Shown: positions 11,595 through 51,368 of the stretch, piece by piece
How the letters are laid out: every line of letters begins with the position of its first letter
Numbering within the stretch: the stretch's first letter is position 1
Source: Acanthopleura granulata
Lineage: Eukaryota > Mollusca > Polyplacophora > Chitonida > Chitonidae
Direction: 5' to 3'
NCBI GenBank assembly: GCA_016165875.1
Contig: JABBOT010000003.1
Span: 36,119,860-36,183,859 of the forward strand
DNA: 64,000 bases
Notes under the pieces: generated by a model
What the model was told of the DNA's origin: nothing
What the model saw: only the letters and a program-made list of their open reading frames with translations
Database searches by the model: none
Position numbers and translations under genes: made by a program

Positions 11595-13141
11595 TCAGAG
11601 CACAGTGGAGTTCTCGTAGACCCTGTGGTCACCAGGTGTGGAGGACGTTGCTCTTCCTGACAACTCCTCGTAATGTGGGGCTGTTGAGGGAAAACACAAG
11701 TAAAGGTGTTATAGAACGTGAACAAAATGTACGAATCAGTTGGAGACATCCAAGGCAACAAGACAGCAGTGTTGAACAACTACACACGAGGTTGTTGCGT
11801 ATATTGTCTTTTTTCTGTTACGCTGTGCATGAAAAATAACCACTTCAACCTCAATGAATTTTTTTAAAGCCTTTACATCGACATTATGACGTTACAACTT
11901 AAAGAGCGTAATTTATGAAGAATTATTTACAACGTTTTCTGAACGTGGCCGGACACCTGTAAAGTCTCCGAATGATGAAAAATGAGTATAAACTTCTTGC
12001 AAGCAGCATCTCTCTGATCAAACTGTTAGTAAGAACAAAATATATTTTCATTACAGGGGAATTTGAGGGAGGGGGGAATGTTTACAATAATTTAAAATTA
12101 TATACAATATTTTTTTCAAAATATCATATTAAAGGACAAGAATATTGAATGCTTGAGATTGAATTATTTTACCTGAAGAAGGCCTTGGTGGCCGACGGGG
12201 TAGCTATGACCCCATGCCTCTCATCCAAGCGGTCGCTGTGAGTTCAAGTCCAGCTTATGCTGGCTTCCTCTCTGAATGTACGTGGGAGGGCCCGCCAGCC
12301 ACCTGCGGATGGTTGTGGGTTTCACCCGGGCTCTGCCTGGTTTATTCCAACCATAATGCTGGCCACCGTCGTATAAGTGAAATATTCTTGAGTACGGCGT
12401 AAAACACCAATCAAATAAATATAGAAATAATTTTACCTGGACTGGGTGCGGTGTCCAGATCCTCATAATGACCTACAACAAATAAAATGGCGGCACCATG
12501 TTACCGGAAGGGAAATTGGCGATGATATCAAATCAATAATTGATTGAATTTCCAAATACACTACCTTTTGTATGAAAAATGCTCGCAATACATTGATTTA
12601 TATTACACAATACTGATAATATTGAAGCGAAAAACGACATAAAGCTAAGTTTACCATGCGCAGAAGGTTCCAGGCCTGCCGTGCCCTCTGCAACTCTCCC
12701 TTCCATTTCCCTGTCTTCAGCAATACTGTAAATGTAACAATTATATACAAAGTTATTTTCCTTTATGTTTTTGTGTACCTCCTTGAAAACCGTTCTCACC
12801 AGCGCGTTCGCTGTGAGTGCAGGCTGAATTCCTCTTTGGCAGTGGGTGGACAGTTCTGCCAGCAATCTGCAGATCGACGTGGGTTTCCCTCAGGCTCTGC
12901 CCATTTTCCCCCCAAAATAATGCCGTATAAGTGAAACATTCTTTGAAAAGCGTAAAACTCCAATTAATGAAACAGATCAACTGAATCCCACACGCAAGAC
13001 GCAAAGTCTCCAGATGTGTTTGAGGACTTGGATTCAACTAGCTACAGCCACGAATACCTTGATAAAAGAACAACGGAAAACAGAGAGTGTAAAATTGATA
13101 CCTCATGACTTGACGTGTATCTTGTTTCTCCGACGCAAGTT
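11595..13141 (-). CDS. Gene A exons 7-10: cytoplasmic signalling tail
   Basis: Four mini-exons of 40, 71, 36 and 86 nt. Exon 9 encodes HYEDLDTAPSP. Exon 10 encodes PHYEELSGRA, ending VYENSTVL and a TGA at 11597-11595. Together these give two YxxL sites nine residues apart, a YxN site and a T-x-L C-terminus. Confidence 0.88.
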
Positions 13142-16100
13142 CTGACAACAAGAAAAGAAACAGAGAAATCCAAATCATATACGTTTTCGTACTTGTATGT
13201 ATTTTCTCCATTAGCCTACTATATAAAATATGATATATTCATTTTTCCTTCTGCTTTGATTTTATTTATCTGTCTGCTTGTTTTTATCTATAACATCAAT
13301 TTTACAGGAAATGATATACGCATTTAAATGAAATTTAGTCCTTGTCTCAAGCACCGATCCATACAATTGTGCCGGTAATTCTGACATGGTCCAGGGAATT
13401 CTTAACCATTCTTAAATGGCAGAAACTTTACAGGAAAGGTTTGTTGTACACAAATTTTCTTGCACTACTTGGTTTATGTTTGGCATCAAGCAGCTTAAAG
13501 TTTGATGGTCATCCGAATCTGGATCAGAATCTGGGAATATTTAAACCCTTCTTCACAGCACCGTTGTGGTAAAGAGGTCATGCGTGGATTTGGGTGAAAC
13601 TTTGAGCAACTCTTAGCACAAGCATCAAAGAGTTAATTATTTTGTTGTTATTCGAATCTATATCCGAATCCAATAATTCTTCTCCGTATAGCGAATGCGT
13701 GATACAACATAAATGCAGAGCATTGTCCCATTTCCTGTAGTGTGGATATTTGTACATTTATCTTTGGTGGTGATTTGCTCTCTTGGAGTCTCGTCCTATT
13801 TAAATCAGTGTACACCGACACCATATCAAAATCACCATCATGACAAAGACTCCAACAGATTACTACATCTCTTACCATTACACAAGGAAACCAGTGGTTA
13901 CAGTAACTCTGTAGTTAATTCCGTTATTAGCAGCTCACCTGTGTGCCCTGAGGATGGTGTTTTTCGCCGCAGCCAGCAAGTCACAGAGACACAAATGACG
14001 GTGACGACAGCAGCACCAACAACAACACCTACACCTAACATACCACCTTTACTCAGGCCGGCTTCTGGGACATCCCTGTGTCCTTGGAATGGCTGTGAAT
14101 CTGCAAAAGAGGATATCGAGCAGGGTGAAAAACATGGTGGCATAGAGCAGGAACCGTCATGACATTATCGAAATCGACTAATAAGGGGTTTAAACCATTC
14201 GTATACCAAATTACACAATGTCTGTTTATTATGTTAAATATTAAAATAAAACCCACCTTGAGTGGTGCAATTTGTTGTAACATATCCTGACAAAGCTATG
14301 TCCGAGTTAGGCTGAAGTCTGAACTGGTAGAACACTCCAGGCTGTAGATCTCTCAGTGTTTTCATCACGAGCTTGACCCTCCCTGGATTTCTGACCAGTT
14401 CTCTCTTCCAAAGTCCCTCTGTCCCTTTGTATTCCAGTTTGTAGTATTCCACCAGAGATTCGTCAAGCCCAGAGGCCCAGACAAGAGAAACTTCGGTGTG
14501 GGTACAGGAGATCAGCTCTAACTCCTTCGGTATAAACTGCCCCTCTAGCAAAGAAAAAGAAATAACTAGAACCTGAAGGTTTAAAATGGATCGGGCTATT
14601 GCGTATTATGTAATTTAAAGATCATACGGTGTACAATGGCATAAGGAGCTGACACAATTTTGTCATCATTGAATACAGGCGTCCGAAACTCGAGCTTATC
14701 TGTAACTACACCAGCTTATAGTCGGGTTCTGAATAGCTGTGGCTAATAAAATCTCTACTTAGTAACAGCAATATACAAGAAAACCGGACTCATTTTATTG
14801 TTGCCGTTAAATTGACGGCACTGTAAGATTTGAAAAGAAGTCAGGAAACCTGGCCAAATTCAAAATGGCTAAAAACGGCCACAATGTTTGAAAATTGACG
14901 GAGCGGCCCAAAGCACAATCTTCATCGGTAGGTCACCATGGTAAAGTAAGTCTTCTTCTGCACAAAGGTGGGGAGTAGGCGTAAGATGTCATATACGTGT
15001 GTTATGAGATAATGTAGATTGAGGAAAACTGATTTGTACATGTAAGTGCAGGCTTGTTTTTCCTTTTTTTTTTCTTGTCGTTTTTTTTTGTGTTACCTAC
15101 CATTTCAATAAAGCCATCACATCGCAGCACTTCCTCTTTCTGGTGGTAGTGGTGATAGCAATATTTTTCGTTCATCGAGGGACCGATTTACGATACGATT
15201 GCAGGAACAATGTTTTGGACTATCGAACAAAAAAAGTTACCTAGTGCATGTAATTGTTCAAGTTCTTAGATGTCCTTCCCATTACTGGCAACGGGGGTGA
15301 GATTTCAAAACAAATACCAAAACCCCAGCTGGTTCAGTGGGTCTCTATCAGGGAGGCTGAAAGCGAAAATATTGAATCCTTCATATGTACACTGGGAGGG
15401 AGTACAGTCCATACCGGATAACGGTACCCTGTGGAGCCTCATCAACGAAGTAAACTGGCAATAAAAGTTAACTTTTATCAGAGAAAAATTCTAAAATCAG
15501 CAGATTCGAAAGTCTTCCACGCTCATGTCTTAATGTCAAACACACAAAAGATACCGTAACTAGCTGGTCTTGTGCTTAAATAATGCGATAAATTTCACAC
15601 AGCCAGCTCGGAGACTCAGTTTAAATAATCAAGGATACGGTCATAGCAACGACCTTTCAGCCACCCTTTAAGCTACTCAGATTGTTTGTAAAAAACATAT
15701 ATGGAGAGAGAGCCCCGTGGGAAGACAAATCCTGCATTAGCCGAGTTGTGATTTGTTCATACCATTATCACATTAATATGATTCAATGTTAAACAATAAT
15801 GTATGTGGATATGGTCAGTCTAGGGTGGTTTTCACTGCCACAGTTTTTCTATTATTTCTTGAAAACTTTCATTTTTCCTAATTCAATACAATTATGATAT
15901 AGCCTTGGTTCAGTTCAAATGTATATGATCAACGTCTCACAATAATATCAGCTTGGAACAATATCAAATACCGTGAGCGCAATAAATTGTCACAGACTTG
16001 GCTGCGCGTTATATGATGTCTTTCGTTTGCAAGCCATGTGACCTTACAGTGCGTGGTGCAATAGGGGTTAACGTGTAACTAACTGGTCGAGCTGGCTGTA

Positions 16101-19100
16101 GGAACTGCACTCCTCTCCCATCTGTATATATATGCAGAAACCATTTCTTTTCGAGCCATTATGGTGTCCCCTGTGTGTGACGGGTCGCACAAGCTATATT
16201 GAAACTTCAAAAGCCGCCCAGAGCTGCCCAGAAATTTGCTTACCAATACATTTCGCCTTCTGTTTATATTTTAACACTCAGTCCGCTGTGGTTCTCCTCC
16301 AGCCCCATGACCTCCCTTCCCCCAAACTACACATAATGAACGCTATGCTTAGATCATTAAGTCCAACCCTGACAAGGTCAGGAGAATGTGACGAGCGTGT
16401 GTACTGCATGAACAAGGCTTTTCTTCTTGCTCCAACGAGAGTAAACCCGCAAAGCTAAGCCTAATTTCGGTAATTTGGAGCAATGCAGTGGGTTGTGTTC
16501 CGGAATGTTTGACTGATGGAAAAGGGAAAAATCTTCAGAGTATCTAGAGAGTGGATCGAGTTACCCGCAACAAACATTCTATTTAATAATCGCCTGACCG
16601 AGTTACTGGAAATGCCGATATATTGTATCATAGAGCAAAAGAGTGCCAGCAGACATGAAACAAATGGTATTGCTAAAAAGTGATTTGAGCCGTATCGCAT
16701 CACTGAGTTACGTTGTGCTACACAATGACAATAATCTTAAGGGGCTTAAATGCCCAATTAGAAGTTAGCATGCCAGGGATGCCAAAACAGGCCGCAGCAG
16801 TACACCCTAAACCTGGAACTACTTCGGTAAATCGGTGACAATTTTCACCACCTCCTAAATGCCCTCAAAGGACTCTCTCCGCTTCACTTCCAGGTCCCCA
16901 AAATACATTTGCTAACAAGGGGTTTCAAGACAGAATTTGTGGTTTATGACGTTAATTCAGTTTAACGAAGTACATCTCCTTGTGACGTAAATATTTTACA
17001 CTGATATATTTCTTCAATTTCCCTTGCGTCATTCGCAAAGGAGATACATGTACCATCGAATACGGATTCTTCCCGGTTTGTTAACACTGATCGTTAGGCT
17101 TGAGAAGATCACATGCCATATTACTAAATGGCGAGCGTTTCCAACTTTTATCCCAGGAAGACCACTTGAGCAAACCGGGTGTATTAAGGCTATGTACAAC
17201 TGCAGTTAAAATTTCAGTGTATTGCCTTCAGTCCTGGAGAGAATGAATGAATGAATGAATGCTTATTGTTTAACGCCCTACTCAAGAATATTTCACTTAT
17301 ACGAAGGCGGTGTCTCCTTGGTGCAGGAGGGATTTCCACCGTATCTTTTATCTGGTGCTGCCTCACCGAGACGACTTGCCGAAGACACCCAACAAGGCCC
17401 CTCACCCAGTCACATTATACTGACACCGGGCCGGCCAGTCCACCCTCGATCCTCTTATTGCTGGGCGCCTAGCGAGGAAGCAGGATGTACCATTTTTTGG
17501 TCTTTGGTATGACCCGACCCAGGTTTGAACCCAGATCTCCCCGTCCGAAAGCTGACGTCCTGGAGAGAAATATATTTTCATTTTACACAAAATCCATATG
17601 GACCTCAAGTCACGTCACAAAATCAGCGTTAATGTTACGGCCTAAAACACCGCAGTGTGGAGAGTAACACCAGCAGAGTGATGCCGATGAAATCCGACCT
17701 TAGGAGATGCGTAACTTCAAGTTCTTCGTTAAAGGATTAGCGCCCAGGTTTTCCTACGGTTCCTAATTATATAGATTCAACCTGTTTTCACAGTATAATA
17801 CCGACAGAGCTTCTCAAAATTGTAATAATGACTTTACGTCCGCCAAAAACTTACGTCAAAGACCGCCAACCCAACATGAGTGAGATAAATAGCCTGAGAA
17901 TTCGTATCAAAATGACATCATTTTTCAGATGGATTCTAGCTGCACAGAAGCAGATATACTGCTGTAACAATTTCATCTCTTAGTCGATGACGATGAAGTT
18001 CGAATTTATGACACTGACATCTCCGGCCAGGCTTCGGATTCTGAGTTTTCAGACAATGAATTTGATCTTTGTGAAGGTATTTGCAATTCTACTGGCAATC
18101 GGGATTGGTGAGCTTTAGCTTTATCGTGTGTCACATTGTATATTTCGTGTGTTTATCCAAAATTCAATACTTATTTACTATTTTTTCCGTCTGTGCTATT
18201 CACCGTAAATATTATTCTACTCCACGGAGCTGTAAAATGACGATAGCAGATAGGCTGTTTTGGCTGGGTACAAAAATACTTCCGTCCTCTACCGTAAATG
18301 CACGCCTTCCTCATATTCTGGAAACTTGCAAAAAAAAAACTAACTCCTGGGTTCTTCGACGATCTGTTTTCACAACCCTATGCAGAATATCAAACCATTT
18401 CGTGGAGAAATTCGATATGCTTGTTGTCACTCTTGTAGCTTCCTAAACATTAGACTAAATGGTATAGCTCTGACTGTTTGTGAAGGTTGGACTTGGAAAA
18501 TGAAATTCGAGGGAGATGTCGGAGGAAAAAATGCACAAAACCAGCCTCATTGTCTAGTGATTTTATATGCTATACTACACAGGTTAATGTACGTTTTTCA
18601 AATACGTTTTTTTAGTCCTAATATAACAATATATGCAGGGGAAGATAATTATGAACAAACACTAAATCTCGACACTAATCATTTCAGTTTTCATTTTTTG
18701 GCTTAGCGCTTTCGCTAGGAATACACCACAAATTTCTCACGAATAATAATCATTTTTGCAAATACAACAGAGTTTCTAGCAGAAGAATGAACTCGTAATT
18801 ATTTCTATGTTAGAGATTTTCCCATCAAGCTAACTCAAACTGTAAGCAAATATATATTCATATCTCTTGCCGAGGAAATATTAGTAACTTTATAACAGGT
18901 TTAATCAATTGATGTACTTACCTATCACTGTTATTTTTATTTCCGCTGTTGATGATCCAATGCTGTTGGTGGCCTCGATCTGATACACACCAGAAAGCCT
19001 CGCTTCCGCCGACTCAAACTCCACTGACGATATAGTGACGTCACGCCGAGTTGGACCTCGAAGGTTTGTTGTCAAAGCGTTATCAATTCGATTGCCACCT

Positions 19101-21480
19101 TTAGACCAGTGGATAACCACGTCGTCTTTGGATGTTACATCACACGAGGTTTTCAATCTCTGGCCTTCAAACACTGTCACCTGAGTTGAGTTACATGTTA
19201 TTTCTGGTGCATCTATTAAAAAGGGAGCGGAAGATGACATGAACAACACTGGCTCCAGATCCCTCATTACTGGGCCTATCCACACAAATTTCTTTCCCCA
19301 ACAGCACGAGTCAGATGTATCTGGTCTAACTTTAATTTACATGTACATCCAACGTCAGATAAGCTTTCTAATACACAGTAACTATCTGAAGAGTTCTCTG
19401 CCTTTAGCAACTCTTTTGTTATGTATGAACTTCAAGTGATAGGGTGGTTGTAGTACTGACAACAGACAGTGATTGTTTCCCAATTTTCCTGTGTCTAGGC
19501 CACCTTAACACGACTTCTTTGGGAACTTCTTTTTGGACGACGCTAAGAAAGCACTTTATGATCTCGTGTAGGGGGCGACATTCTCGGTGTCTTCGGCATG
19601 ACATTTTTATGAGGCACCACTGTACATATATGTGCTAGTGGAAGAAGACACCCTCATAAAGTTAAGATGGGCTAAAAATGGTGATTTGATATAAACCCCA
19701 CGCTAGTGTGCAAATCCTGTCACAACTAAAAGAGAAATAAGTACGCCTCTCTTGTTAGTAAATACGGACGGAGTTGTTTAAATGGCACACGATTTGGATA
19801 TTGATTTCATTTATTCGCCTAGAACATTCATTGCCACTTTTCCTCATCATTGCAAACTGTTCACTGTTTCTCTATGCATGAAGCCATCCTAATCTTTAAA
19901 TTTTATAAATTTTTCTACTTCTTTCGTGATTTGTGTTCTTTGTTGTCTTTCGAAACTGATCTTGCGATTATTTACCCGGAACGCTCATTTTAGCAGACGG
20001 CTGGTATACGAATGACGGTTTCCAAGCCCAGGTTTATAGCCAGTTAAATTTCATTATCATATATAATGGCAATGGTGGATAATGTCTGTTTCTAAACATT
20101 TTTCACTTCACTCTTAATTTGTAAATTCTCTTGAAATCTAAAGTTAATCTTCAAGACTGTTTAATTAAAACATTCATTTAGCACATATTTATTCAACACA
20201 CCCTGTCATTATCTGACGCCAGGTTACAATTGCACGACATCATACCTACACTGTACAAAGAGTGTGTAGACTTGTGAGCGTAGAGGAGGATCAGTCACAC
20301 TGTTGGAAGCGTTACAGTACAGCTCAGCTCCGTCCTCCTCGACACTAGCTGTAAACGTCAGTGTCCGGGTTGTGGTCTGTACCAAGCTGGAGTCCTGGTT
20401 ACAATCAGCCGGCGGGTCAAGCTCCCGGACACTACCGGAATGCCGTATGTACCACCGTATACAGGCCTGTGGCTTACTGGCCGAGGTCACACAGGTAAAG
20501 GAGCTGGGTTCACCGGCAAAGACTGCATCTGGAGGGTTCGCCAAGCTCACGCGGGTTACCATTACTGAAATGAAACGACTCTGTCGTTACCATTGTCATT
20601 TTAATTTACCTACAAATATGAAGGACACGAAGATGTTAGTTTTCCGACTAAATATATGCAGTATAGTCCACAGTAAGATTGTATTAGCTTGTTGGATGAG
20701 CAAACAGCATAGAAATGAAACACAAAAAAACTATTAGAAAATCAAGATGCAGTGTTGTAATACATTTACTCTTAACGTCCAAAATAATATCTTTAAATCC
20801 TGTGTGTACTTTGGTACTTGAAAGCGTCTTTCATGACATGAGGAGTACATAGAATAGCAAACAGATAATACACGTTGCTGAGGAAAAATAAGCTACAAGC
20901 CCTACAACTATGTTCTACCTTTAACATCCAGGGTAACCTGGTCGGTCTGTCCTGCATACAGACATCTCCAGATGCCTCGACCCGTGTCTTCTGTGACGTT
21001 ATCTATGGTCAGTGTGTAAACCCCTTCACCGTTGACGCGTTGACATCCCCCTGACACCCCGGCTGGTGCTGTTACCGCTAAGGGTATTGACGCGTTACAA
21101 AACCTGGACAGGTATATCAGGGATGTGCTTGCAGCAACATAATCCCAGCGCACACGATTAAGGTCACCTGTGGGTCTGGTTATCTTACACTCCAGGGTAA
21201 ATGGACGACCCGTCACGACATCACCTGGTTCTGTGATTGACTGACTGAAGACAAATAATACTGAAATAAAACAGAACAGGCCTAGGTTTTAGGTTAAAAT
21301 GTAAAACGCTTGAAACATAAGCTGTAAACATTAACGACGACTAAAGCAGACGTCGCTGCTGCTACACTATGTATGTAGATGTAGATAGGGAATCATTCAA
21401 TCCGTGGGATTTTCTTTGTTCTTGCAAAGGTTATACTTACCTTGCCATAAGCTGAAAAATACCGTTGATAAGCTTTTCAT
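11595..21480 (-). CDS. Gene A: three-Ig plus FN3 transmembrane receptor
   Basis: Ten exons join in frame to 556 codons: 21480-21441 (signal), 21260-20919 (D1), 20564-20250 (D2), 19212-18922 (D5), 14544-14257 (FN3), 14100-13939 (TM), and tail exons 13141-13102, 12725-12655, 12472-12437 and 11680-11595. All junctions have GT and AG. The protein is predicted to be a type I surface receptor with a V-like D1 holding four cysteines, two further Ig domains and one FN3. The TM segment is GMLGVGVVVGAAVVTVICV, followed by WLRRK. The tail carries YEDL, nine residues, YEEL, then YENS and the C-terminus TVL. D3 and D4 of gene B are absent from the 1-kb D2-D5 intron. The signal exon was chosen because it is exactly 40 nt, ends CAAG|GTAAGT and matches the first exons of genes B and C. 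Ligand and function are unknown. Confidence 0.88.
12181..12423 (+). mobile_element. SINE in gene A tail intron
   Basis: Nearly complete copy with a shortened tRNA-like head (CCTTGGTGGCCGACGGGGTA), B box GAGTTCAAGTCC and an intact tail GTACGGCGTAAAACACCAAT. It lies in the intron between exons 9 and 10, only 14 bp from exon 9, and on the strand opposite to the gene. Confidence 0.9.
12797..12966 (+). mobile_element. Degenerate SINE in gene A tail intron
   Basis: Old copy recognised by CGTTCGCTGTGAGTGCAGG, CCAGCAATCTGCAGATCG, GTGGGTTTCCCTCAGGCTCT and a decayed GAAACATTCTT tail. It lies between tail exons 7 and 8. Confidence 0.75.
13939..14100 (-). CDS. Gene A exon 6: transmembrane segment
   Basis: 162 nt, the same length as in gene B. 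Encodes a juxtamembrane stalk, GLSKGG, then about 22 hydrophobic residues with a G-x-x-x-G spacing (GVGVVVG), and a CWLRRK stop-transfer. There is no charged residue within the membrane. Confidence 0.9.
14257..14544 (-). CDS. Gene A exon 5: fibronectin type III domain
   Basis: 288 nt, phase 1 to 1. Shows VSLVWASGLDESLVEYYKLE and the GVFYQFRLQPNSD stretch typical of FN3 (B-strand Trp and F-strand Y-x-F-R-L). Cysteines near each end (ISC and TNC) are shared with genes B and C. Confidence 0.9.
14545..18921 (-). other. Gene A FN3-D5 intron, 4.4 kb
   Basis: Apart from the type-B SINE, no exon of the family was found. A plus-strand stretch at 17933-18110 reads as an acidic segment (EVRIYDTDISG, SDSEFSDNEFDL) interrupted by a stop. 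It could be a relic of a transposase-like protein but is too short to name. Confidence 0.4.
17241..17565 (-). mobile_element. Second SINE family (type B), most complete copy
   Basis: The minus strand carries a perfect B box GGTTCAAACC, a unique body (TGGACTGGCCGGCCCGGTGT, GGGTGTCTTCGGCAAGTCGT) and a 3' tail CGTATAAGTGAAATATTCTT shared with the main SINE family. It ends in GAATGAATGAATGAATG on the plus strand. It lies in the long FN3-D5 intron of gene A. Confidence 0.8.
18922..19212 (-). CDS. Gene A exon 4: D5 Ig domain lacking the F-strand Cys
   Basis: 291 nt, phase 1 to 1. I-set-like, with VFEGQRLKTSCDV, the core Trp in VIHWSKGG and SGVYQIEATNSIGSS. The F-strand position is isoleucine where canonical domains have cysteine. 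An extra cysteine occurs near the N-terminus (EITCN). Confidence 0.9.
20250..20564 (-). CDS. Gene A exon 3: D2 Ig domain
   Basis: 315 nt, phase 1 to 1. It has the B-strand Cys in SFTCVTSASKP, the core Trp in CIRWYI and the F-strand Cys in AELYCNASNSV. A second cysteine pair (QACI and ADCN) is conserved with gene B. Confidence 0.9.
20919..21260 (-). CDS. Gene A exon 2: D1, V-like Ig domain
   Basis: 342 nt, phase 1 to 1. It contains RPFTLECKITRPTGD (B strand Cys), the core tryptophan in VRWDY, an extra pair of cysteines (RFCN and GGCQ) and the F-strand Cys in WRCLY. A sequon NVT lies in the E-F region. Confidence 0.9.
21441..21480 (-). CDS. Gene A exon 1: signal peptide
   Basis: Encodes MKSLSTVFFSLWQ, a short basic start followed by a hydrophobic core. 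It ends in phase 1 at a GTAAGT donor. The length of 40 nt equals that of the other two intact first exons. Confidence 0.8.
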
Positions 21481-31434: not shown

Positions 31435-31440
31435 AAGGAC

Positions 31441-34713: not shown

Positions 34714-37700
34714 GTAAGTAAATGAACTAATGTGCTTGCCCCTCGTCCACGAATGCATGTGAAATTCACTTTGTCTACATCAATCGTTATATATGCATAT
34801 GCAACTTACGTGTCTTTCTCAACCTTTGGTTTAGTGTTACTACTGGTGTCCAGTCAATCAATCACAGCACCAGATGATGTCGTGGCTGGTCGTCCGTTTA
34901 CCCTGGAGTGCAAGATAACCAGAGTCACAGGTGATAGATCTGCTCTCTCCTGGCGGCGAGATATTGGTCAGACCATATCCCGTATATACGCCTCCCGTGT
35001 ATGTAACACGTCAGTACCAGTATCACCATTACTAACGACCGGGTTATCAGGGGGATGTCAACACGTCAACGGTGAAGAGGTTTACACAGTCACCATAGAG
35101 AACGTCACAGAAGACACCGGCCGCGGCAGATGGGTATGTCAGTATGGAGTACCGGCGGACACAGTTACCCTGGATGTTAAAGGTACGATTTAATCCCAAT
35201 TTCGTGTTAACGCATTTAGGTTTTGTAGAATGATATCCTTTTTATAGAAATGTGAAAATTGTCTGTCCTTAAATATTCTTTGAAAATATTGAAGTCAGAA
35301 AGATCTGTAAGCCAGTAAGTGTTTGGGGCAATTCATGTTATGTGGCGTCTTTTCATGTTCGTGGATTTTACATATACATAGAGGAACATTCGGAAGTATT
35401 AGTTTACACTAGTGCATGGTGCGCTTCAGTCATTTGTGTCCGATACTGGCTTATTGTCACTAAGCCCTGAAGAAGACTTTTTTTAAGTGTAGGACTTGTG
35501 ACGTTTGTGACGCCACCAATATGTAAGCTATTGCCCTTACATCCTTTACTGTGCAATTTCTTACACTTTCAGAAAAAGAATTTAACTGCAAGAACGTTAT
35601 ATTCATTTGCATTCCATAATTTCTCGTTCTTAATTCTCTGTGCATATCTTTAGGATTTTTATGAAAAGAAATGTACTGTAATATTTTATTTACTATAATT
35701 CATTTATCTCGAATAGTGTTTCAAATATCTTAAATCCGAAAAATGCTTTCTGTAAACTAACTCTAATTGCAGGTATGACACAAAGGTTTTAGTGGATGAT
35801 GAATCAGTAACGTCGACATTAATTACGCTTTTGGAGTTCATGTTAGGTAGGTTTTGGTCTGATTCCAGTAATGGTATCGAGAATAACCCTGACGAGCCCT
35901 CCAGATGCAGTGCTAGCCGGTGATCCCGCCAGCTTTACCTGTGTGACCTCGGCCAGTAAGCCCCTTGCCTGTGTAAGAGGATACATACAGAGTTCCGGTA
36001 ATGTCCGGGAGCTTGACCCGCCAGCTGATTGTAACCAGGACGCCAGCTTGGTACAGACCACAAACCGGACACTCACGTTTATAGCTACAGCCGAGGAGGA
36101 CGGAGCTGAGCTGTACTGTAACGCCTCCAACAGTGTGACTGATCCTCCTGTACGCTCACAACTCCACATACTCAATGTACAGTGTAAGTATGGGGTCTTG
36201 AGATCAACAGGTCCTATTTGACGAGAAAATGGCTTGTTTTGTATGTAGAACATCGTAGAATATATAGACACGCACTAGCCCATTATAATTTAAACCGAGA
36301 TATTTGACCCCAGTACGACAGTGTAGTTAAAGCGTCTAAATAGAATCATGTTGAGGTCATAAAAAGAATAACGCCAGTACATCAAGTTATATATATGCGC
36401 ACAAAGTGTCAAATGGGATTGGAGACCATATTTCAATCCCGGCTCGGGTCATATCACAGACTTTCAAAATGTCACTTGTTACGGCCTCGCTTGGCGCTCA
36501 GCAGTAGGAGCTTATAGCAAGGAAGACGACCCGGTATCAGTATAATGTGTCTGGGTGGAGTGTCATGACTGATGTCTACGGCATGATGTTCCAGTGGCGG
36601 CAGCACTTTGGCGGTTTGCACTCACCCTGCCAGAAGAAGACACAGTAGATATTCATTTTAAGGACTTTTCATTGTCATATAACTGAAAAATAGTGGAGTA
36701 CGACGTAAAACCCAAGCATGCACATATTCGATTATTATTTATTTATTTAAAAATGGGGCCTCCGTGGGCAAGGGGGTTAGCGCGCCAGTGCGGCGTAATG
36801 ACCCAGTGCCTCTAACCCATATGGTCGCTGTGAATTTCAAGCTCATGCTGGCTTCTCCTCAGGACGTACATGGGAAGGTCCGCGAGCAACCTGCCAATGG
36901 TCGTGGATTTCCCACGGGCTCAGCCTGGTTTCCTCCCACTATAATGCTAGTAGTCGTCCTATAAGTGAAACATTCTTGAGTACGGCGTAAAACACGAATC
37001 AAATAAATAAATAAACAAAAATAATATTTCTTTAAGTATGTTATAACGTGATCCGTTTGCACTGCTTTCATATAAATGTCCATTCAATGTGACACTGGCA
37101 CAGTATTTTGAGTTACTCCCGAGAAGCTACGCTTTAGAAAGTGAAGATAACACCAATGTATTAATTTATTTACCTAAATTGAGCTGAAATCATGCATGGT
37201 GCATGGTGGGGTGTACGTTACTACGATTTAAAAATGAAAGTTTGTCTTTTGCATAAAATGCCCTAGGTATGTATAAGGAAGACGGGCCCTCCAACTGTTT
37301 GTTTGACGATGCCGTGTTCTCAAAATTTAGGAAAACAAGTCAACACAAGGATAATTATATTTATTTTTGGAGTGCTAAGGTAAAGAAGCTGTATCCCCGT
37401 TAACTTCGTCATGTTGTACCAGTTCAGCGTTTTCCTGATGGATCACATCATTGTAAGCTCACCAGGGGACACAGGCTATCATAAAACACATGGTATTTTT
37501 GGAACTCTCCTACATGAAAGCTTGAGACTTCATCCCGTTTCTCTCAACCTGATACACGGAATAGTTCCCAAGACGGCGCGTAATATTGGTTACTTCGTGA
37601 ACTTTGACATGAAACTCGATATGTTGTCTATTGATGGGATCCAGTTTGACTACTTCGTTTGTGTTTTTATTTTGACAGACAAACGATATGTTTGAAAACT

Positions 37701-40700
37701 ACCTGTTCAACTTTAATTATTAAAACGCGTACATTGGTGTCACATGGAACGTTGTTTAGGTTACCGAGTGCAAGAGATATTTGCATACATCCTTCGTTTG
37801 TTAAATATGCTGGCCTAGGCTTCATGGGTTAAACATTTCTCTAATGTGTTAGAATTAAACATTTATATTAACAGCCATAATATAACCCCTGCTATGTCTT
37901 TCGTAGTCGGCTATGATGTATGTTGTTCTAACGTGACATCATAAAGGTCCTGGTTCTCAGAAACTAGAGACCCCAGTTTCCCATGCAAAAAATGATTTAT
38001 TTAATCTCATAGCTACGTACGTTTTGGCATACTGTAGTATGTTAAGGTCGAGTTCACATGTAGCTTCTATTAAAAGACAGTTATTCTCTTGTCAGATCCA
38101 CCAAAGAGTGGCATCCTCCTGTCAGGTTATGTTAACAACACAGCCGTGGAGTCTGGAGAAATACTGACCATGAAGTGTCAGGTGAGAAAGGGGAATCCCC
38201 GACCAGCACTCTCCTTGTCATCGGGGTGTGGCCAGCCAAACACGGTCGCTGGTAACGATGAAAGTCAGCAGATTAGTATCGGTATAACCGTCACTCCGTC
38301 CCTGAACCAGAAGACGTGTGTGTGTAAGGGAAATCAGGACGGGGCGTTGACAGGATGGGCGGAGGAGAAGAGCAGAACATTCAATGTCACGTGTAAGCAT
38401 ATTTTAAACACCTATTTCTGCTAAGAAATGCTTTACTGAAATTGACTTTTCATTGAAATAATTTTTTCATTGAGGAATGCTGCCTTGAAGAATGGAAGAG
38501 CCTGAAAACTTATTTTCGTCTTGAAGAAAATTGTTCCAAGCTGTGCAGTCTTTTGTTCCTTCGTTTTAGTCAGTTTTTTTGGTGTATGTGTACCCTCAAA
38601 ATATTTAGGTAGTGCACAAGCACTGCAACGCTGCAACCGAAAAGATATGCGTTTTGAACTGCAGTGTGGATCACTTTGTACATCCCGTCAATGCTCTGCC
38701 TTTAAAATAACCGAAATGAAATGTAAACAGATTTTATTTCGACTCATTAATGTGGGTTACCACTATTTTATCGGTGAATACCAACCTGTAGCAGCCGTGA
38801 AATTTCTTGTATTAGACTCATTTGCAGTTTGGGTAGAAGTTATCAGGAGAATTTCTGTGACTTATTACGTCGTTACCTTTATCACCAAAATACCACAAAT
38901 TCACAATGCAGCTTGCTGAATACATAATCTAATCAGGTAGTATTAAACTAGTAAAGCGGAAAAAATGGCGCTCGATGTGTTAAAATTTTTTTGATTGCAC
39001 CACGCATGTGTGCTGACAGAAACGAGAATATGTAAACTAAATGTATGTATGCATGTATGTATACATGTATGCTTGGGTTTTACATTGAACTTCACAATTT
39101 TGCATCCATCTGACGACGAGGAGTTAATATAATGTATATACTGTGTCTTTTTGAGGCAGGACGAGTCCTTGGCGCCATTGTGCTGCCGCTGCTGGTATAT
39201 CATGTCGAAGACACCTGTCATGACACCCCGCCTAGCCAATTTATACTGACACCGGGCCGACCAGTCCTGTTTCCTTGCTAGAAGCTATCAGTGCTGAGCG
39301 CCAAGTGCCACGCGAGGCAGTAGTTACAAGTATACCATTTTTAAAGCCTTATGTATGATCCAACCAGGGGCTGATCCCGGATTTCTAGACCTCTAAACAA
39401 AGCTGCAGCTGATATCAGGTTTAACAATGTACTAATGTACCGAGCTCCTGGTCGTTATGACACATGTGCTTCTCACCAATGCGGTCGCTGTGAGTGCGAT
39501 CACGGCCAGTTCATGCTGGCTTCCTCTCCGGCCGAACGTGGGAAGGTCTGCCAGAAACCTTCTGATGGTCGTGGGTTTCCTCCCGGCTCAGCCCGGTTTC
39601 TTCACACCATAATGCTGGTCGTATAAGTGAAATATTCTTGAGTATGTCGTAAAACGAATGAAATAAAATATTTCACTCACTCCTGGTTTCATTCAGGATA
39701 AGCTCGCAGTTCCACAGCATCTGTGGTCATTAAATTGTAAATAAACCCTGACATGTATATATTTACGCATCGATAACAGAGAGATTACGCATGCATATAA
39801 AAGCGACATTAGTTTTATGTTTCGATCAAGAGGTAGAGTAAATCCTGTGTGTTTTAACAAAATTGTTTTCCCTTTCCTGTAATTCCACCATTTTTATACT
39901 CTAAGTTTCGCGTTATAAACATTGTTTTCTATTACTTGGAGCGGTGGCGCTGTCGCATATCCAGACAGCTGTTGACGTTTCCAGTCAGGCAATTCATATC
40001 TGTGTAATATTTAATTCGCCGAGTAGAACATCCATCATGTTTTACTCGTGTGTCTCTGGTACACTTTCCACAGACGAGTATTGTTTTCTGACCGTTTTCT
40101 GATTCCCTCCCACCAAAACGCCATATTGAGCGCCACCGTAAAAATAAGAAAAATCTTTAATTATCAGGTTTTGTGTACAGTTATTCACTGTATGGTTACT
40201 GATGCATTCTTTCAGTTCGGCCTGGCAGCGTACAGCTCCGGGCAGATTCCGGACAATCGGGAAACACAGTCACGGTCACAGAAAACAGCACACTGAGATT
40301 TACATGTACCAGTGGTGAGTCCAATCCTGCTGCCGTCCTCTCCTGGTACAACAACAGCAGTCCTATAGCAGCGGCGGAGATATCAGACGTCAGCTCACAG
40401 CGAGGTCTCAATCACGGGTACCTGACCTCACAGCGGTATACAGTGAAGGTTGATCGATATCAGGATGGTGACGTCATCAGATGTGAGGCTCAGAGACCGG
40501 GCAATGGAAACAGTAAACGCGTATCACCCAACCTCACACTTAGTGTCACGTGTAAGTCAAAATCCATGGAATTTTCCTATCGTATTATATGCTTTTTTCT
40601 TTCAATCTAAGGTCTGATCAGAGTCACCTTCGCATGTTTCATGCAGCTGATTTCGCCACTGTAGTTCGGGGCTGACTGATTTAAGTCTTTTCTTGAAGAA

Positions 40701-43700
40701 TTCAGTAGTCATACCAGTCTAGCGTTTGTATACTCTTTGTACAAGTCTCGCAATGTACTTGCAGCAACCTAGAAAAGATGGTATGAAAAGCTTAATATGA
40801 GATGTAATTGTCAAGAAATTACAGGTAATTTTGCAAAATAAATGTTCACATTACCTTGGCACCTAAATTTTGGAATATAGTGTTTGGGGCATTGGTGCTC
40901 CCAATCGTGGGAATAAAATATACTGGTACAGAGTGTCTTCAGTCAAATGAATACAGTACATTGTGTTGTGGCCCCTGAACATCTTAATCACTGCTCAACC
41001 ATACTTCTCGTTCAAGAAGTAAAACATGAAATATGACGGCACAAGGTGTAAAATTCTACTTTTATCTGTGAAGAAAATAGCATTATGTCAGCATAGCATA
41101 GAGCACAACTTTCCTTTGAAAAATACCTTGATAAATTTTGATATGTTTTTACTAATTTTATTTGCAACAAACTTAATTTTTTTCTAAAAACACATGCATG
41201 TATCTATTTCAGATATGCCTCGGGTGGTTTGCAGCAGAACTGATCTAAAGGTGTTTGAGGGTCAGCGGATCGAGCTTTCCTGTGACGTCATGTCTAAGCC
41301 AGAGGCCACTGTGACGTGGTTTAAAGATGGCGGACAAGTTGACGGAGTTTCATCGAGAACATCAGAGCAGCGTGACTTCATCGTAGCTACTCTTCAAGTC
41401 GACGTGCATCACGACGCATCGTCTGGCAAATACGAGCTAGTCGCTACCAATGCTATCGGAACCACTAACGAGACAATACGGATAACCAAGAAAGGTACTG
41501 CGTTACCTGCTTTTCCGATGTCGATATTTTAAAATATACATGTTAGATCTGTGACTTTTTTTAAAATATACATGTAAGATCTGTGACTTTTTAAGTGTCG
41601 GTTTGCCTTGCCTTATTTTCTAGTTGAATGCAAGTGGGTCTGAAAACAGTTGCATCATATCTCTAACTCCGTCATGCTTGTATCCCGCAGTGAGTGTCTG
41701 AACAGTAATGTTGGTGAGAATAAAGATTAGCAAGGGGAGACTACATTAAACCTTTCCTTCAACTACAACATTCAGTAAAATTTCTATTTGTAGAGAAATG
41801 AACAGAAAAGGCTGTTGTTGCTATGATGTAAATGAGGCGAGTTTATCTTTGCAGAAGGTCAGCCTCTACCAGAACAAATTTACCTGGATTCGAACTCCTG
41901 TATTAACAACCAGGCTACTCTGCTCTGGGCTTCTGGTATTGACGACTCTGCAATGACATACTACAAGCTGGAGTACAAAGGAAATCAGGACGTTTGGCAA
42001 GGAGAGCTCGTCAGAAATCCAGGAAGAGGGAAACTTGTGCGGAAAAACGTAAGCGGTCTACAGTCTGGAGTGTTCTACCAGTTCAGACTTCGACCTGTCT
42101 TAGACTTTCTCGTGCCACTCTTCACGACAAGAAATTGCACCGTGAAAGGTGAGTTACTTTTTAATACCTTGTTTTCTTCTTTTTGATTTATTTATCACAT
42201 ATACAACTTAAATTGTCGTGTATGTTTGCTCTGTAAAATCACTTCCAGTCACTAAACAAGATTGCCTTCAGCTAGTGACGCGTAACACAACAAGCTCTAC
42301 ACAAAGTTATATTAGGCGTTCATATATTATTGTCAGGAAATGCTGTTAGAGCACCATTTCTCACTTATAACGTTATAACGTTAACTCCATCAGATTGTTT
42401 TCGGGGCCAAAACGTTATTTGTCTCGAGTGGCGTGTTTGTTACTAAAACCGGTAACTTCCTGGTTAATCATGTTTGGAATTGATTTAAAGTTTTGGTGTA
42501 GTGTAAAGTTAATAAATGTGCGTTATTTTGTCTCTTGTAGCTTAATCATCTAAAAAGGGTGTCAGCATAACATATAGCAAAAATTTCCTCTGAAATATAC
42601 CTTGGGTTTAGATTTTAATGTTAGGAACTTCTGTTATCAAAAAACAATGTCGCCTACTACTTGACATGCAGTAGTAGTGTGGGCTTTGTGCTGTTTACAC
42701 AAATCAAATAAGCACATAAAAACTGGGCGGATAAAAATTTGCATAAGGATTTGGTGTTTGTAGGTTTTCAGTCATGTGACAAACGGACGGCTGAGAGGGA
42801 GATAGGCCTAAGTAAACCCGGAATGCTAGGAGTGGGAATTGCTGTGGGAGTTTGCCTCGTCGCTTTATTTGGAGCAGTGGTCATATGCTTACTTCTCCAC
42901 ACACGAAAATTAACTTGGACAAAACGTAAGAATGATGATGTACATGAGCGTGTGTTGTACCATGCATTGTATATCAGAACTTTAAGTTTATTTTGTACAG
43001 TTGCAATACTTTTCAAAGAATAAATATTAGCGAGTAGCAAAGTGGTCCTAATAATTAAATTTATGAATTTGTACGTGAGGGAGACCACGCGTGAGATATT
43101 TTATGGGTAATTACGAATCTACATGTAATTCTCCTCGATCATCTTTCAGGAGATTGTGAAAAGTACAGAAACCAGACGTAAGTAATAAAAGAAGTGTTCA
43201 AAATACCCGTTGAAGCCTTCAACCAGTGAAATTTCCATAGACCAGCTTCATTAAAAAATAAAATTAACATCCCAATTTTAGATATCTAAAAGTAGAAAAT
43301 GGGCAGCATGCAGTTTCCAAAAACATATCTACATGTATGTACTTGTATTATTCAATGCGTTAACCCCAGATAAACGTAAAATCACCACTAAACACACCAT
43401 CTGGTTTCTAAATAAGAACAAAGCCCGGTTTCATGAAGCATACTTAGTGCTAAGTAGCCTTTAGGTAAGTGCACTTCCTAACTCTACAACATACGTTGTC
43501 ATGGAAGTTAAGCGAATACTTAGCTAAGTGTGCTGCATGAAACCCGGTCCTGGTGATATTATACCTGCATCTGCCAAGTTTATGCAGAACCCATCGTAAT
43601 ATTTTCGTAACAAAATGATGGGCCTAAAACTTAAATAAATGGACCAAAACTTAAAAACGTGGAAATAGTTTTTCGAATTTGTCTTCAGGTGCTCTCCAAT

Positions 43701-44430
43701 ATTCGTTTAGGAAGTTAAATATACTTTCCCAAGATTTTTGTTAGTAAATGTTCTGAAGATCTGTGTTGACTTTTAACGGTTTTCTATTCCCCGGTCACCG
43801 ATGTATGACTTTGCAAGTTTTCTATTTTTAGAGCTGACACCACCGGAAACAGCTCAGAAGATCCACCGCTAGGTAACTTCAGATTTTGTTCGCTTATTTT
43901 TTCCGTGGAACCACAAATACATATATTTTGTACTTATTCCTGACGAAAGTGTAGCATTTTCCCTTTAACTTTAAACGGATGAAAAAAATAATGTCTATAA
44001 TTTTTTATATTTTAATTAATTTAGCCGATTCGCAACTATTTTCAAATCTGTTCACCGGTATTGTTTTAGGTCCATATGAAGATTTGAATACCAGGCCAAT
44101 CTCAAGTAAGGTTTGTGTAAAACTTCCTAAACACATTCCTAAAATTCTAAGACATAAATACATAATTAGTGTTTGTTATTTTCATGCAAAAGTGGAAACA
44201 GGTTGTGAAAAACAGCAGTATCTATGCAGCAACGATTTTTGCATGTGTAGTGCATTCTTTCCATGTATAGCTGAAAGTAATGAAATTTTAACCAATTTAC
44301 ATCCATAAACATGTACATAATATCTGTGCACTGTCCGGTTTCAGGTGCCAAGTACGAGGAACTCTCTGTCAGACCAGCATTACCTGCATCTGCTGAACAG
44401 GCAGTGTACGTCAATCCTACTGTGATGTGA
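34674..44430 (+). CDS. Gene B: five-Ig plus FN3 transmembrane receptor
   Basis: Twelve exons join in frame to 754 codons: 34674-34713 (signal), 34835-35182 (D1), 35869-36183 (D2), 38096-38392 (D3), 40216-40551 (D4), 41213-41494 (D5), 41855-42148 (FN3), 42764-42925 (TM) and tail exons 43150-43177, 43832-43872, 44070-44105 and 44345-44430. All introns are GT-AG, and every exon up to TM starts and ends in phase 1. The predicted product is a type I receptor with a hydrophobic signal (LVLLLAASVQ), five Ig-like domains, one FN3, a single membrane span with GVGIAVG, and a tail holding YEDL-x9-YEEL, YVNP and C-terminal TVM. It is the fullest member of the cluster. The ectodomain plan recalls Ig-superfamily recognition receptors, but no specific orthologue can be named. 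Confidence 0.9.
34835..35182 (+). CDS. Gene B exon 2: D1, V-like Ig domain
   Basis: 348 nt. Starts VLLLVSSQSITAPDD, then RPFTLECKI, the core Trp in ALSWRRD, RVCN and GGCQHV (extra cysteine pair), and GRGRWVCQY. Sequons NTS and NVT are present. Close copies occur in gene C. Confidence 0.92.
35869..36183 (+). CDS. Gene B exon 3: D2 Ig domain
   Basis: 315 nt. SFTCVTSASKP, a second cysteine pair (LACV and ADCN) and GAELYCNASNSV. The core tryptophan found in gene A (IRWYI) is glycine here (VRGYI). Confidence 0.92.
36425..36720 (+). mobile_element. Type-B SINE in gene B intron
   Basis: Shares TTTCAATCCCGGCTCGGGTC, TTGGCGCTCAGCAGTAG, GACGACCCGGTATCAGTATA and GTACGACGTAAAACCCAAGC with the copies at 17.2 and 39.2 kb. 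The main-family SINE follows directly after its AT tail. Confidence 0.7.
36755..37019 (+). mobile_element. Full-length SINE in gene B D2-D3 intron
   Basis: GGGGCCTCCGTGGGCAAGGG head, B-box region, body, CACTATAATGCTAGTAG and a full tail GTACGGCGTAAAACACGAAT plus (AAAT)n. It is placed just after a type-B copy. Confidence 0.9.
38096..38392 (+). CDS. Gene B exon 4: D3 Ig-like domain
   Basis: 297 nt. ESGEILTMKCQVRKGNPRP is a typical Ig B-strand region. CVCKGNQDGALTGW gives the F-strand Cys. The exon ends with NVTC. The core Trp is not obvious (ALSLSSGCG). It is found only here and as a relic at 5606-5880. Confidence 0.88.
39150..39420 (-). mobile_element. Type-B SINE fragment without tail
   Basis: The minus strand shares the body words GTGTCAGTATAAATTGG, GGCGCTCAGCACTG and CATGACAGGTGTCTTCG with the other type-B copies. 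The tail is replaced by unrelated sequence. Confidence 0.7.
39437..39669 (+). mobile_element. SINE in gene B D3-D4 intron
   Basis: Head partly lost (ACCGAGCTCCTGGTCGTTAT). Body with CAATGCGGTCGCTGTGAGTG, CACACCATAATGCTGG and tail GAAATATTCTTGAGTATGTC are present. Confidence 0.88.
40216..40551 (+). CDS. Gene B exon 5: D4 Ig domain
   Basis: 336 nt. ENSTLRFTCTSGESNP, the core Trp in AVLSWYNN and the F-strand Cys in DVIRCEAQR, ending LTLSVTC. Resembles Ig C2/I-set domains of cell-adhesion receptors. The frame was set by the flanking splice phases. Confidence 0.9.
41213..41494 (+). CDS. Gene B exon 6: D5 Ig domain lacking the F-strand Cys
   Basis: 282 nt. FEGQRIELSCDVMSKPEATV, then the core Trp in VTWFKDGG and GKYELVATNAIGTT. 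Leucine stands where cysteine is normal. The extra N-terminal cysteine (VVC) is conserved with genes A and C. Confidence 0.92.
41855..42148 (+). CDS. Gene B exon 7: fibronectin type III domain
   Basis: 294 nt. NNQATLLWASGIDDSAMTYY, LEYKG, ELVRNPGRGKL and GVFYQFRLRPV define the FN3 fold. Cysteines SC and NC lie near the two ends. Confidence 0.92.
42764..42925 (+). CDS. Gene B exon 8: transmembrane segment
   Basis: 162 nt. GLSKPGMLGVGIAVGVCLVA begins a span of about 24 hydrophobic residues that ends LLLHTRK. The glycine pattern matches gene A. Confidence 0.92.
43150..44430 (+). CDS. Gene B exons 9-12: cytoplasmic signalling tail
   Basis: Mini-exons of 28, 41, 36 and 86 nt. Exon 11 encodes GPYEDLNTRPIS and exon 12 SAKYEELSVRP, ending VYVNPTVM before TGA at 44428-44430. 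Exons 9 and 10 are shorter than in gene A and diverge freely. Exons 11 and 12 keep the length exactly. Confidence 0.9.
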
Positions 44431-45392: not shown

Positions 45393-45399
45393 AAAATGA

Positions 45400-47830: not shown

Positions 47831-47945
47831 TTTCTTACCTTTAGCGATAAACGAGTTAGAACTCCCGTATTCTTTAAGAATATAACAGCTTTACGCGTAT
47901 CCGTTATATGCCCTAGTAAAACAAATACAACTGTTCATATAACAT

Positions 47946-48494: not shown

Positions 48495-48622
48495 CACCAG
48501 CCTGCACATGGTCGTCGGTTTCCCCGTTTTATCCTGTTTTCTCCCCCCCTAATTTGACCGGCGGGGTAGGAGCGAAATATTCTTGACTACTGCGAAAAAC
48601 ACCCATAAAATAAACAAATAAA
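48495..48622 (+). mobile_element. Degenerate SINE within duplicated block
   Basis: CCAGCCTGCACATGGTCGTC, TAATTTGACCGGCGGGGTA and GAAATATTCTTGACTACTGC. The counterpart lies at 60247-60344, so this insertion predates the duplication. Confidence 0.75.
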
Positions 48623-49865: not shown

Positions 49866-49872
49866 AGATTCT

Positions 49873-51368
49873 TTATAACGCTGTGGCATTTTCATATGCG
49901 CTGTTTCCAGGAGGTTCCGATGGGGATGATATCCTATCTGTGAGAACTTCGTAATGTGGACCTGATGAAACAAACAGATTTGTAATACATGGGTGTCACT
50001 CGTGACACATCAAAGAGTAAGTGGCAGGGGCTCGGTGTATACAAATTAACTTATTGACAAAAGAGAAATATTACAAATATGTCCATGTTATACTGCTGAA
50101 ATATAAAACAACAAGAGTTCTGAAAAATGGCAGCTGGATGAATTATTAGAAGCAAGCAAAGTAGTAGTGGCGGTTTTACTATAAACAGATATGAAAACTA
50201 TATTATATGGGGTTCTTCTGTTTCTCCCCAAGGTGGGAATTTGAAGTACATGTACGTATTATAGGTGCATGTCGTTGTATACACAATTGTCTTTTCCAAA
50301 TATCAAACATGAATGTACAAATGTCAGATATAAGTGCGTTTAACGGAAAAGTAATACCTGGATTAGCTGAAGTGTCCAAATCTTCATAGTGACCTAAGAA
50401 GAAAAGCACATCATATTCATCCAGTTGCTTCTGTGAAGATGAAAACTAATCTCAAAACAGACATTCAGTGATAGACAGAAAGATCGGATGAAGATCTTTG
50501 ATACAACCTGGATTTTGTGTTACAGTTTGACACAGTCAAAGGTCTGTTTTGTCCACAAAGGTATTGGTTTTCTAAATAAAAATGTAACATAAACTTTACC
50601 AGTTGGAGGTAGTTCGGTGTCAGTCATTTGTCCTTCAACCCTGGCATGAGCGACCCTACGGAAGGACAAAAAACACACACTAACGTCATTGAGTGTCTTA
50701 TTGAACGGTTGTTTACGTAGTCTCTCGAACAACAATATGATGCGCCTGTCCATGATCTATGCAACTGCAACAAAAATCTCAACATCCCCATTGGAGTTTC
50801 CGAGGTGAAAAGCTTGGCGCTATAGACGACTAATCCGTGGATTTGCAGTGCAGGCTCGGTGAACTTAATATATTCACATTGTTTGAAGCACATTTCTCTT
50901 GTGACGTTTAATGTGTAGAAGATATATTTTTACGGTTCTCCTACTTGAACTGAATTGAATGCTGTTATAAAGTTACTGTGTAACAGTTATAGGTAATAAT
51001 AGTTTTAAGGGTCTACGTAAAACTATATTTAATGTCATTTTCAAATTTCATCCGCTTTTTCGGCGTCTGTTTCTTATTTGTTTTGATTTTAGATGTAGTC
51101 ATTCTCTTGTTAAAATACACTGCAACTGTTTCGTATAATTCCAACGTGTTCTCGGCACGTTATGTTGCTGAGATACTGTCAATGTTGTACTAAGCACTAA
51201 TTATTTATTCATTCATTTCGATCACGAGGTTGACTAAATGAAAAAGATGGCACAACCAAAAGCTACATTTATAAATCTAAGATAACCTGAGATTTGGTAC
51301 ACAAAGACTCTTGATACACACTCACCTCATGCCTACATCTGTAGTCTGCTGGTTTTCCACACTGTCAT
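49873..51368 (-). CDS. Gene C exons 7-10: tail
   Basis: Mini-exons of 43, 56, 36 and 89 nt. Exon 9 reads HYEDLDTSANP. Exon 10 reads PHYEVLTDRI, ending AYENATAL before TAA at 49875-49873. The order and phases match genes A and B. Confidence 0.85.

What the first reader, a model, noticed from the sequence alone, without database searches (positions are those of the whole stretch)
11595..50393. Conserved tail code: YEDL-x9-YE[E/V]L, YxN, PDZ-type C-terminus
Gene A, gene B and gene C encode two YxxL/V-type sites always separated by nine residues, although the residues between differ (for example NTRPISSAK compared with DTSANPGPH). A third tyrosine 14-15 residues later is always YxN (YVNP, YENS, YENA). 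The last residues are TVM, TVL and TAL, and SVF in pseudogene 2. ITAMs use paired YxxL/I, pYxN is the Grb2 SH2 consensus, and S/T-x-hydrophobic at the end is a class I PDZ ligand. All three together on one Ig receptor would be an unusual signalling tail.
Basis: partly seen in the sequence, partly recalled or inferred. Interest (0 to 1): 0.9.

Follow-up and report, generated by a model that had tools for sequence, protein, structure and literature searches.

The report
Chiton Ig receptors with ITAM-like tails
This stretch of an assembly that is probably a chiton's holds part of a tandem family of predicted Ig-domain cell-surface receptors whose inner tails share two tyrosine sites at a nearly fixed distance, a third tyrosine site and a fixed end motif, kept by selection while the rest drifts, which would likely let them signal like vertebrate immune receptors.

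Summary
Genes A, B and C in the window encode YEDL-x9-YE[E/V]L, then YxN 14-15 residues on, then TVL, TVM or TAL. They belong to a tandem array with 16 places bearing the last tail exon, on contig C3 of an assembly whose size and contig count fit the chiton Acanthopleura granulata. The spacer is nine residues in 14 of 14 sets with both exons. Seven of 17 Liolophura sinensis entries seen carry the tail.

The motif is constrained: synonymous sites are near saturation (pS 0.66), yet the eight motif codons show pN 0.079 against 0.378 for the other tail codons (permutation p 0.0006).

Corrections: two Liolophura entries have ten residues, and one gene seems to make both nine and ten. Gene C has lost most of its transmembrane exon. 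The combination is less unusual than claimed: shrimp Dscam tails have predicted ITAM, SH2-binding and PDZ motifs, and Neph1 binds Grb2.

Syk-type SH2 exons and Grb2-like exons lie in the same genome, so ITAM-like signalling is the likely mechanism; no binding was tested. Some members instead end in a short basic tail conserved between genera.

The parts
11595..21260 (-). Gene A: IgN 20919-21260, Ig2 20250-20564, Ig5 18922-19212, FN3 14257-14544, TM 13939-14100, cytoplasmic exons cy1 13102-13141, cy2 12655-12710, cy3, cy4
   Evidence: phase-consistent splice model; signal-peptide exon not located
12437..12472 (-). Gene A cy3: GHYEDLDTAPSP, first YxxL, 36 nt, phase 1-1
11595..11680 (-). Gene A cy4: second YxxL, YENS, ends TVL-stop
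34835..44430 (+). Gene B: five Ig exons, FN3, TM 42764-42925, cy1 43150-43177, cy2 43832-43872, cy3, cy4
44070..44105 (+). Gene B cy3: GPYEDLNTRPIS
44345..44430 (+). Gene B cy4: AKYEELSVRPALPASAEQAVYVNPTVM-stop
49873..56150 (-). Gene C: IgN x2, Ig2, Ig5, FN3 51999-52286, cy1 51326-51368, cy2 50600-50655, cy3, cy4; no intact TM exon found
51606..51690 (-). Remnant of gene C TM exon: 3' part kept, acceptor and most of the membrane span missing relative to C'
   Evidence: alignment with C'; in-frame stop
50358..50393 (-). Gene C cy3: GHYEDLDTSANP
49873..49961 (-). Gene C cy4: PHYEVLTDRISSPSEPPGNSAYENATAL-stop
25323..27771 (-). Pseudogene 2 tail: TM remnant 27697-27771, cy1 26840-26879, cy2 26597-26652, cy3 26332-26367 with stop, cy4 25323-25408 ending SVF
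3559..6603 (+). Pseudogene 1: Ig exons with stops and frame breaks, no tail exons found

Best explanation
The window holds part of a tandem gene array, in an assembly that is probably the chiton Acanthopleura granulata, whose genes encode predicted single-pass Ig/FN3 receptors with a tail of YxxL-x9-YxxL, YxN and C-terminal [ST]-x-[LMF] that is conserved by selection and likely signals like an ITAM receptor. Shown: exons, array, conservation, matching tails in predicted Liolophura proteins, and Syk-type SH2 exons and Grb2-like exons in the same genome. Inferred: ligand binding clusters the receptor; a Src-family kinase phosphorylates the YxxL pair; Syk docks through both SH2 domains; the third tyrosine (pYxN) recruits Grb2 towards ERK or actin; and the last residues hold the receptor on a PDZ scaffold. 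The first YxxL sits alone on a 36-nt exon with symmetric phases, so skipping it would leave a frame-true tail with one YxxL (inferred). Short-tailed paralogues would bind ligands without signalling (inferred).
For: Gene models with consistent phases. 16 places with the last tail exon found in the genome, all on C3 36.13-36.64 Mb (the tool calls its counts lower bounds). Across A, B, D and G, motif codons pN 0.079 versus 0.378 for the others, pS 0.66, 3 of 5,000 random codon sets as low (p 0.0006); 0 of 20,000 neutral simulations keep the motif in four tips. Motif columns are better conserved across 10 two-genus sequences, 0.875 versus 0.631, p 0.0037. Tail of P0010 predicted disordered (pLDDT under 50 from residue 468), with a helix at 443-467 in the TM place at low confidence. 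Chiton SH2 exons at C7:857-863.6 kb match SYK and ZAP-70 at 1e-40 to 2e-37, the next family at 3e-12. Collinear Grb2-like exons on C2. ITIM consensus [ILVS]xYxx[ILV] is absent at site 1 (Gly at -2) in 10 of 10 and present at site 2 in only 1 of 10 (read from the alignment).
Against: No expression, phosphorylation or binding data. Spacer 9-10 is at or beyond the ITAM range of 6-9 given in PMC4034164 (passage). P0012 has F at the second site. A distant paralogue outside the array (C3 30.8 Mb) keeps YEDL and YEN, but its reading frame ends CDTH, no PDZ-type end. YxxL with L, M or V also fits endocytic YxxPhi. Ectodomain folds look like adhesion proteins (SYG-2, DIP, nectin). Of the chiton Syk-type gene only N-SH2, linker and the start of C-SH2 were seen; its kinase exons were not looked for.
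Confidence: 0.55

Rival explanations
1. Adhesion receptor of nephrin/Neph type: the tail mainly links cell contacts to actin and junction scaffolds through pYxN-Grb2 and a PDZ ligand, and the YxxL sites bind other SH2 proteins one at a time, not Syk.
For: Top Foldseek match is a chain of the SYG-1/SYG-2 complex, then DIP and nectin ectodomains; NCBI names nephrin-like and syg-2-like for Liolophura relatives; Neph1 binds Grb2 when phosphorylated (PMC3135133, passages).
Against: Fold matches among many-Ig proteins are unspecific (query TM-scores 0.35-0.40); the paired YxxL at fixed distance is not a nephrin feature (recalled); an array with many broken copies is not typical of structural adhesion genes (recalled).
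Confidence: 0.25
2. The YxxL sites are endocytic YxxPhi signals for AP-2 and the tail code is about trafficking.
For: Every +3 residue is L, M or V, which suits YxxPhi.
Against: E at +1 and D/E at +2 of the first site is fixed in 10 of 10, which AP-2 does not need and kinases and SH2 domains favour (recalled); YxN and the C-terminus are conserved too.
Confidence: 0.12
3. Shared ancestry and gene conversion alone keep the tails alike.
For: Copies such as A/A' and B/B' are mostly 85-95% identical blocks.
Against: A, B, D and G are near saturation at synonymous sites (dS about 1.6) yet keep the motif.
Confidence: 0.05

Closest known systems
Oyster CgIgIT2 (Crassostrea gigas), five Ig domains, TM, ITAM (PMC11999971, section 3.2.3 read)
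   Same: molluscan multi-Ig receptor with an ITAM-type tail; reported there to signal through ERK phosphorylation
   Different: no tandem array, YxN or PDZ end described in the section read; sequence not compared here
Arthropod Dscam tails (PMC6851185, passages)
   Same: Ig receptor with predicted ITAM, SH2-binding and PDZ motifs, tail exons optional
   Different: one large alternatively spliced gene; there the ITAM is given as a YxxL; here many genes with a fixed compact triple code
Hydractinia Alr and Botryllus FcoR receptors (PMC12065747, passages)
   Same: recognition-locus receptors with ITAM/ITIM or hemITAM tails; pathway genes present
   Different: unrelated ectodomains (recalled); no allorecognition known to me in chitons
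Nephrin/Neph1 (Kirrel), SYG-1/SYG-2
   Same: Ig receptors; Neph1 recruits Grb2 and a cited title gives Neph C-termini as ZO-1 PDZ ligands (PMC3135133, passages and reference list); similar fold
   Different: no paired YxxL known and not tandem arrays (recalled)
Vertebrate ITAM receptors (CD79, CD3, Fc receptors) and Drosophila Draper/Shark (listing and recall)
   Same: paired YxxL for tandem-SH2 kinases; CD79a has a further docking tyrosine (PMC4034164, passages)
   Different: spacer mostly 6-9; no PDZ end (recalled)

Membership tests
ITAM | two YxxL/I | tested here: met
   A, B, C, D, A', B', C', D', A'', E' and G in A. granulata; Liolophura 6 of 7 tail-bearing entries, P0012 has YEDM and FETV
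ITAM | spacer 6-8 (6-9 in PMC4034164) | tested here: inconclusive
   9 in 14 of 14 A. granulata sets and 5 of 7 Liolophura entries; 10 in P0003 and P0010
ITAM | binds Syk-family tandem SH2 when doubly phosphorylated | not testable with these tools
   candidate Syk SH2 exons present
ITIM | [ILVS]xYxx[ILV] | tested here: not met
   site 1 0 of 10, site 2 1 of 10 (G) in the alignment
Grb2 SH2 ligand | YxN | tested here: met
   10 of 10
Grb2 SH2 ligand | phospho-dependent Grb2 binding | not testable with these tools
   Grb2-like exons present
Class I PDZ ligand | [ST]-x-hydrophobic at the C-terminus | tested here: met
   10 of 10; last residue L, M or F; not kept in the distant paralogue at C3 30.8 Mb
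Class I PDZ ligand | PDZ binding | not testable with these tools
   none
Nephrin/Neph/Kirrel family | orthologous ectodomain | tested here: inconclusive
   fold similarity only, 17% identity, query TM-score 0.35
Endocytic YxxPhi | Tyr and hydrophobic +3 | tested here: met
   (second Tyr F in P0012); no use in uptake tested

The most novel reading that the evidence does not exclude
Chitons run a paired-receptor recognition complex: a tandem array whose distal Ig domains are swapped and diversified by recombination, with long-tailed members that fire a combined Syk, Grb2 and PDZ tail and short-tailed members (RRRAKKKL[AG]LN) that bind without firing, a molluscan counterpart of the Hydractinia and Botryllus recognition loci.
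Probability: 0.25. Interest if true: 0.8.

Novelty: new variant of a known kind. Interest (0 to 1): 0.55.

Why it matters
ITAM-type Ig receptors are best known from vertebrate immunity. A constrained ITAM-like, YxN and PDZ-type code on a receptor array with many broken copies in chitons, with Syk-type SH2 exons in the same genome, gives a testable molluscan case of immune-receptor-type signalling outside vertebrates. It also offers a natural series of intact, broken and short-tailed copies.

Tried and rejected
A protein search with only the TM and tail of P0003 as scored region found nothing but itself, and missed even the related P0005, so reach beyond chitons was not tested; absence elsewhere is not claimed. 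A tyrosine-loss contrast between lesioned and lesion-free copies gave Fisher p 0.059 (18 of 22 kept versus 21 of 21) or 0.015 (9 of 13) depending on which lesioned copies count. The classes were set by hand, A'' was left out, and C', counted as lesion-free, has a partial IgN exon, so I treat this as weak. For gene C no other TM exon was found among phase 1-1 candidates with usual donors between 51300 and 52010. The tail of one + strand copy could not be read because of a masked stretch. Gene C as a normal receptor: rejected. ITIM reading: rejected on the -2 residues.
Full report
Source. The window is C3:36119860-36183859 of an assembly with 606,523,666 bases in 87 contigs. The published Acanthopleura granulata genome is 606.9 Mb in 87 scaffolds (PMC7850002, passages), and the best 14 of 23 protein matches are all from the chiton Liolophura sinensis. 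The species is therefore an inference from assembly statistics and relatives.

Observation. Exons of genes A (-), B (+) and C (-) were mapped by tblastn and splice sites and joined into models in which every phase fits. Each has phase 1-1 Ig and FN3 exons (A and B also a TM exon), then cytoplasmic exons cy1 (1-2), cy2 (2-1), cy3 (36 nt, 1-1) and cy4 (1-stop). Pfam finds Ig domains in A and B and a sub-threshold FN3 (C was not scanned). The reported tail code is present exactly as written. All three parts together arise 0 times in 300,000 shuffles of each tail.

Array. Last-exon searches of the whole genome give 16 places, all on C3 between 36.13 and 36.64 Mb; four are in the window; the tool calls such counts lower bounds. 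I read the contiguous 264 kb from the window start (13,547 letters read N) plus the two outlying places. With copy names of mine, cy3 and cy4 were extracted for 14 sets: A, ps2, B, C, D, E, A', B', C', D', F, E', A'' and G (one search ended with a file-writing error after printing all results). For ps2' and H only cy4 was found. The spacer is nine in 14 of 14. Ends are TVL, TVM, TAL, TGL, TEM, SVF or TVF; E has a frame break before the end, and the last residue of H was not read. The FN3 exon of D has 38 matches genome-wide, 13 of them in the array, the others at most 55% identical.

Constraint. For A, B, D and G, cy3+cy4 has pS 0.66 and pN 0.315. The eight motif codons (three Y, two +3 residues, N, T and the last residue) have pN 0.079 against 0.378 for the other 32; 3 of 5,000 random sets of eight codons are as low. 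A neutral star-tree simulation kept the motif in all four tips in 0 of 20,000 runs. In ten tails from two genera (A, B, D, C', G, P0001, P0003, P0005, P0012, P0013; C, P0010 and P0025 not included) the motif columns average 0.875 identity against 0.631 for 32 others, p 0.0037. The code is thus under purifying selection; spacing alone is less well tested, since indels are few.

Results against the strict reading. P0005 and P0010 are identical over all 553 shared residues; P0010 lacks one 89-residue Ig block and has one extra Ala at the place that corresponds to the cy3-cy4 junction, so one gene probably uses two acceptors three bases apart and makes spacers of nine and ten (Liolophura DNA not seen). 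P0003 also has ten. P0012 reads YEDM...FETV. P0002 and P0004 have the same kind of TM but their models end before the code. Of 17 Liolophura entries seen (P0001-P0014, P0024-P0026), 7 carry the tail. A distant paralogue at C3 30.8 Mb keeps YEDL and YEN but not the end. Copies with other damage have lost tyrosines: Y1 in E and F, Y2 in ps2', Y3 in E by a frame break; statistically this is weak.

Gene C. Compared with paralogue C', gene C has lost the acceptor and most of the membrane span of its TM exon (in-frame stop), while the stretches on either side align at 91.6% and 85.8%. FN3 could splice in frame to cy1, so gene C is either decaying or makes a soluble protein (inferred). It should not be counted as an independent working receptor.

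Short tails. Two + strand copies (array positions 109 kb and 257 kb) run from the TM into LRRRAKKKLGLN and a stop (read from the DNA). Liolophura P0024 ends LRRRAKKKLALN. The 109 kb copy has a stop in FN3; the 257 kb copy shows none in the exons mapped. A short basic tail is therefore conserved between genera.

Ectodomain. Between B and B', IgN and Ig2 have dS 0.22-0.28 while Ig5 and FN3 have 0.015-0.03 and the 5' flank differs by 3%, which looks like exchange of the distal Ig cassette with another paralogue. Distal IgN exons show dN/dS 0.45-1.5 in four pairs (five exons). AlphaFold2 of P0010 with 13 sequences gives Ig/FN3 domains, a helix at 443-467 where the TM lies (low confidence) and a disordered tail (mean pLDDT 71.7, pTM 0.45). 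Foldseek's first matches are SYG-1/SYG-2, DIP and titin chains, with nectins giving the highest TM-scores in the list (0.40 by query); such matches among multi-Ig proteins are unspecific.

Machinery. Three collinear exons on C7 (857.0-863.6 kb) encode an N-SH2, linker and start of C-SH2 that, joined, match SYK and ZAP-70 at 1e-40 to 2e-37, with the next family at 3e-12. Collinear SH3-SH2-SH3 matches on C2 fit GRB2 at 55-65% identity; three of the four matches run over stop codons, probably intron ends, and were not read.

Mechanism. The best-supported reading is an ITAM-like receptor: phosphorylated YxxL pair for Syk, pYxN for Grb2, C-terminus for a PDZ scaffold. The ITIM consensus is not met. 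Adhesion-receptor signalling of Neph type is the main rival, and the two are not exclusive. No step of signalling is shown here.

Known. ITAM-type tails on molluscan Ig receptors are reported (oyster CgIgIT2, PMC11999971 section read), Dscam tails with ITAM, SH2-binding and PDZ motifs (PMC6851185, passages), and ITAM/ITIM-type receptors in Hydractinia and Botryllus (PMC12065747, passages). Listings of the paper searches on ITAM in molluscs, ITAM/ITIM in invertebrates and chiton receptor expansions showed no paper on this family. The finding is a new variant: a compact triple code, nearly fixed and selected, on a chiton tandem array with conserved short-tailed partners.

Noticed in passing
array positions 257014-257121 and 109313-109420 (+), C3 36.38 and 36.23 Mb; P0024: Short-tailed members ending LRRRAKKKL[AG]LN, conserved between the window's genome and Liolophura.
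   Followed up: partly
34835-36183 (gene B) versus B' at C3 36.27 Mb: Distal Ig exons of B and B' are far more diverged than the rest of the gene and its 5' flank, as if a cassette had been exchanged.
   Followed up: partly
51606-51690: Gene C has lost most of its TM exon while its other mapped exons stay open.
   Followed up: yes
cy3 exons, e.g. 12437-12472: The YEDL exon is 36 nt with symmetric phases, so it could be skipped in frame; copies A' and E' have lost AG at its acceptor.
   Followed up: partly
TM exons of D, C', D' (array 65.9, 166, 175.8 kb) and P0025: An Asp lies inside the predicted membrane span in this subgroup, absent in A and B.
   Followed up: no
28965-31391 (-): Fragments resembling a Ty3/gypsy-type retroelement (gag- and integrase-like frames; label recalled) upstream of pseudogene 2's tail, between it and Ig remnants.
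   Followed up: no
e.g. 12280-12430, 53400-53550, 4444-4570: A dispersed short repeat occurs several times in the window, probably a SINE (recalled label).
   Followed up: no
P0009, P0011: Related Liolophura receptors carry other tyrosine codes, with repeated YAEV or YENV motifs.
   Followed up: no
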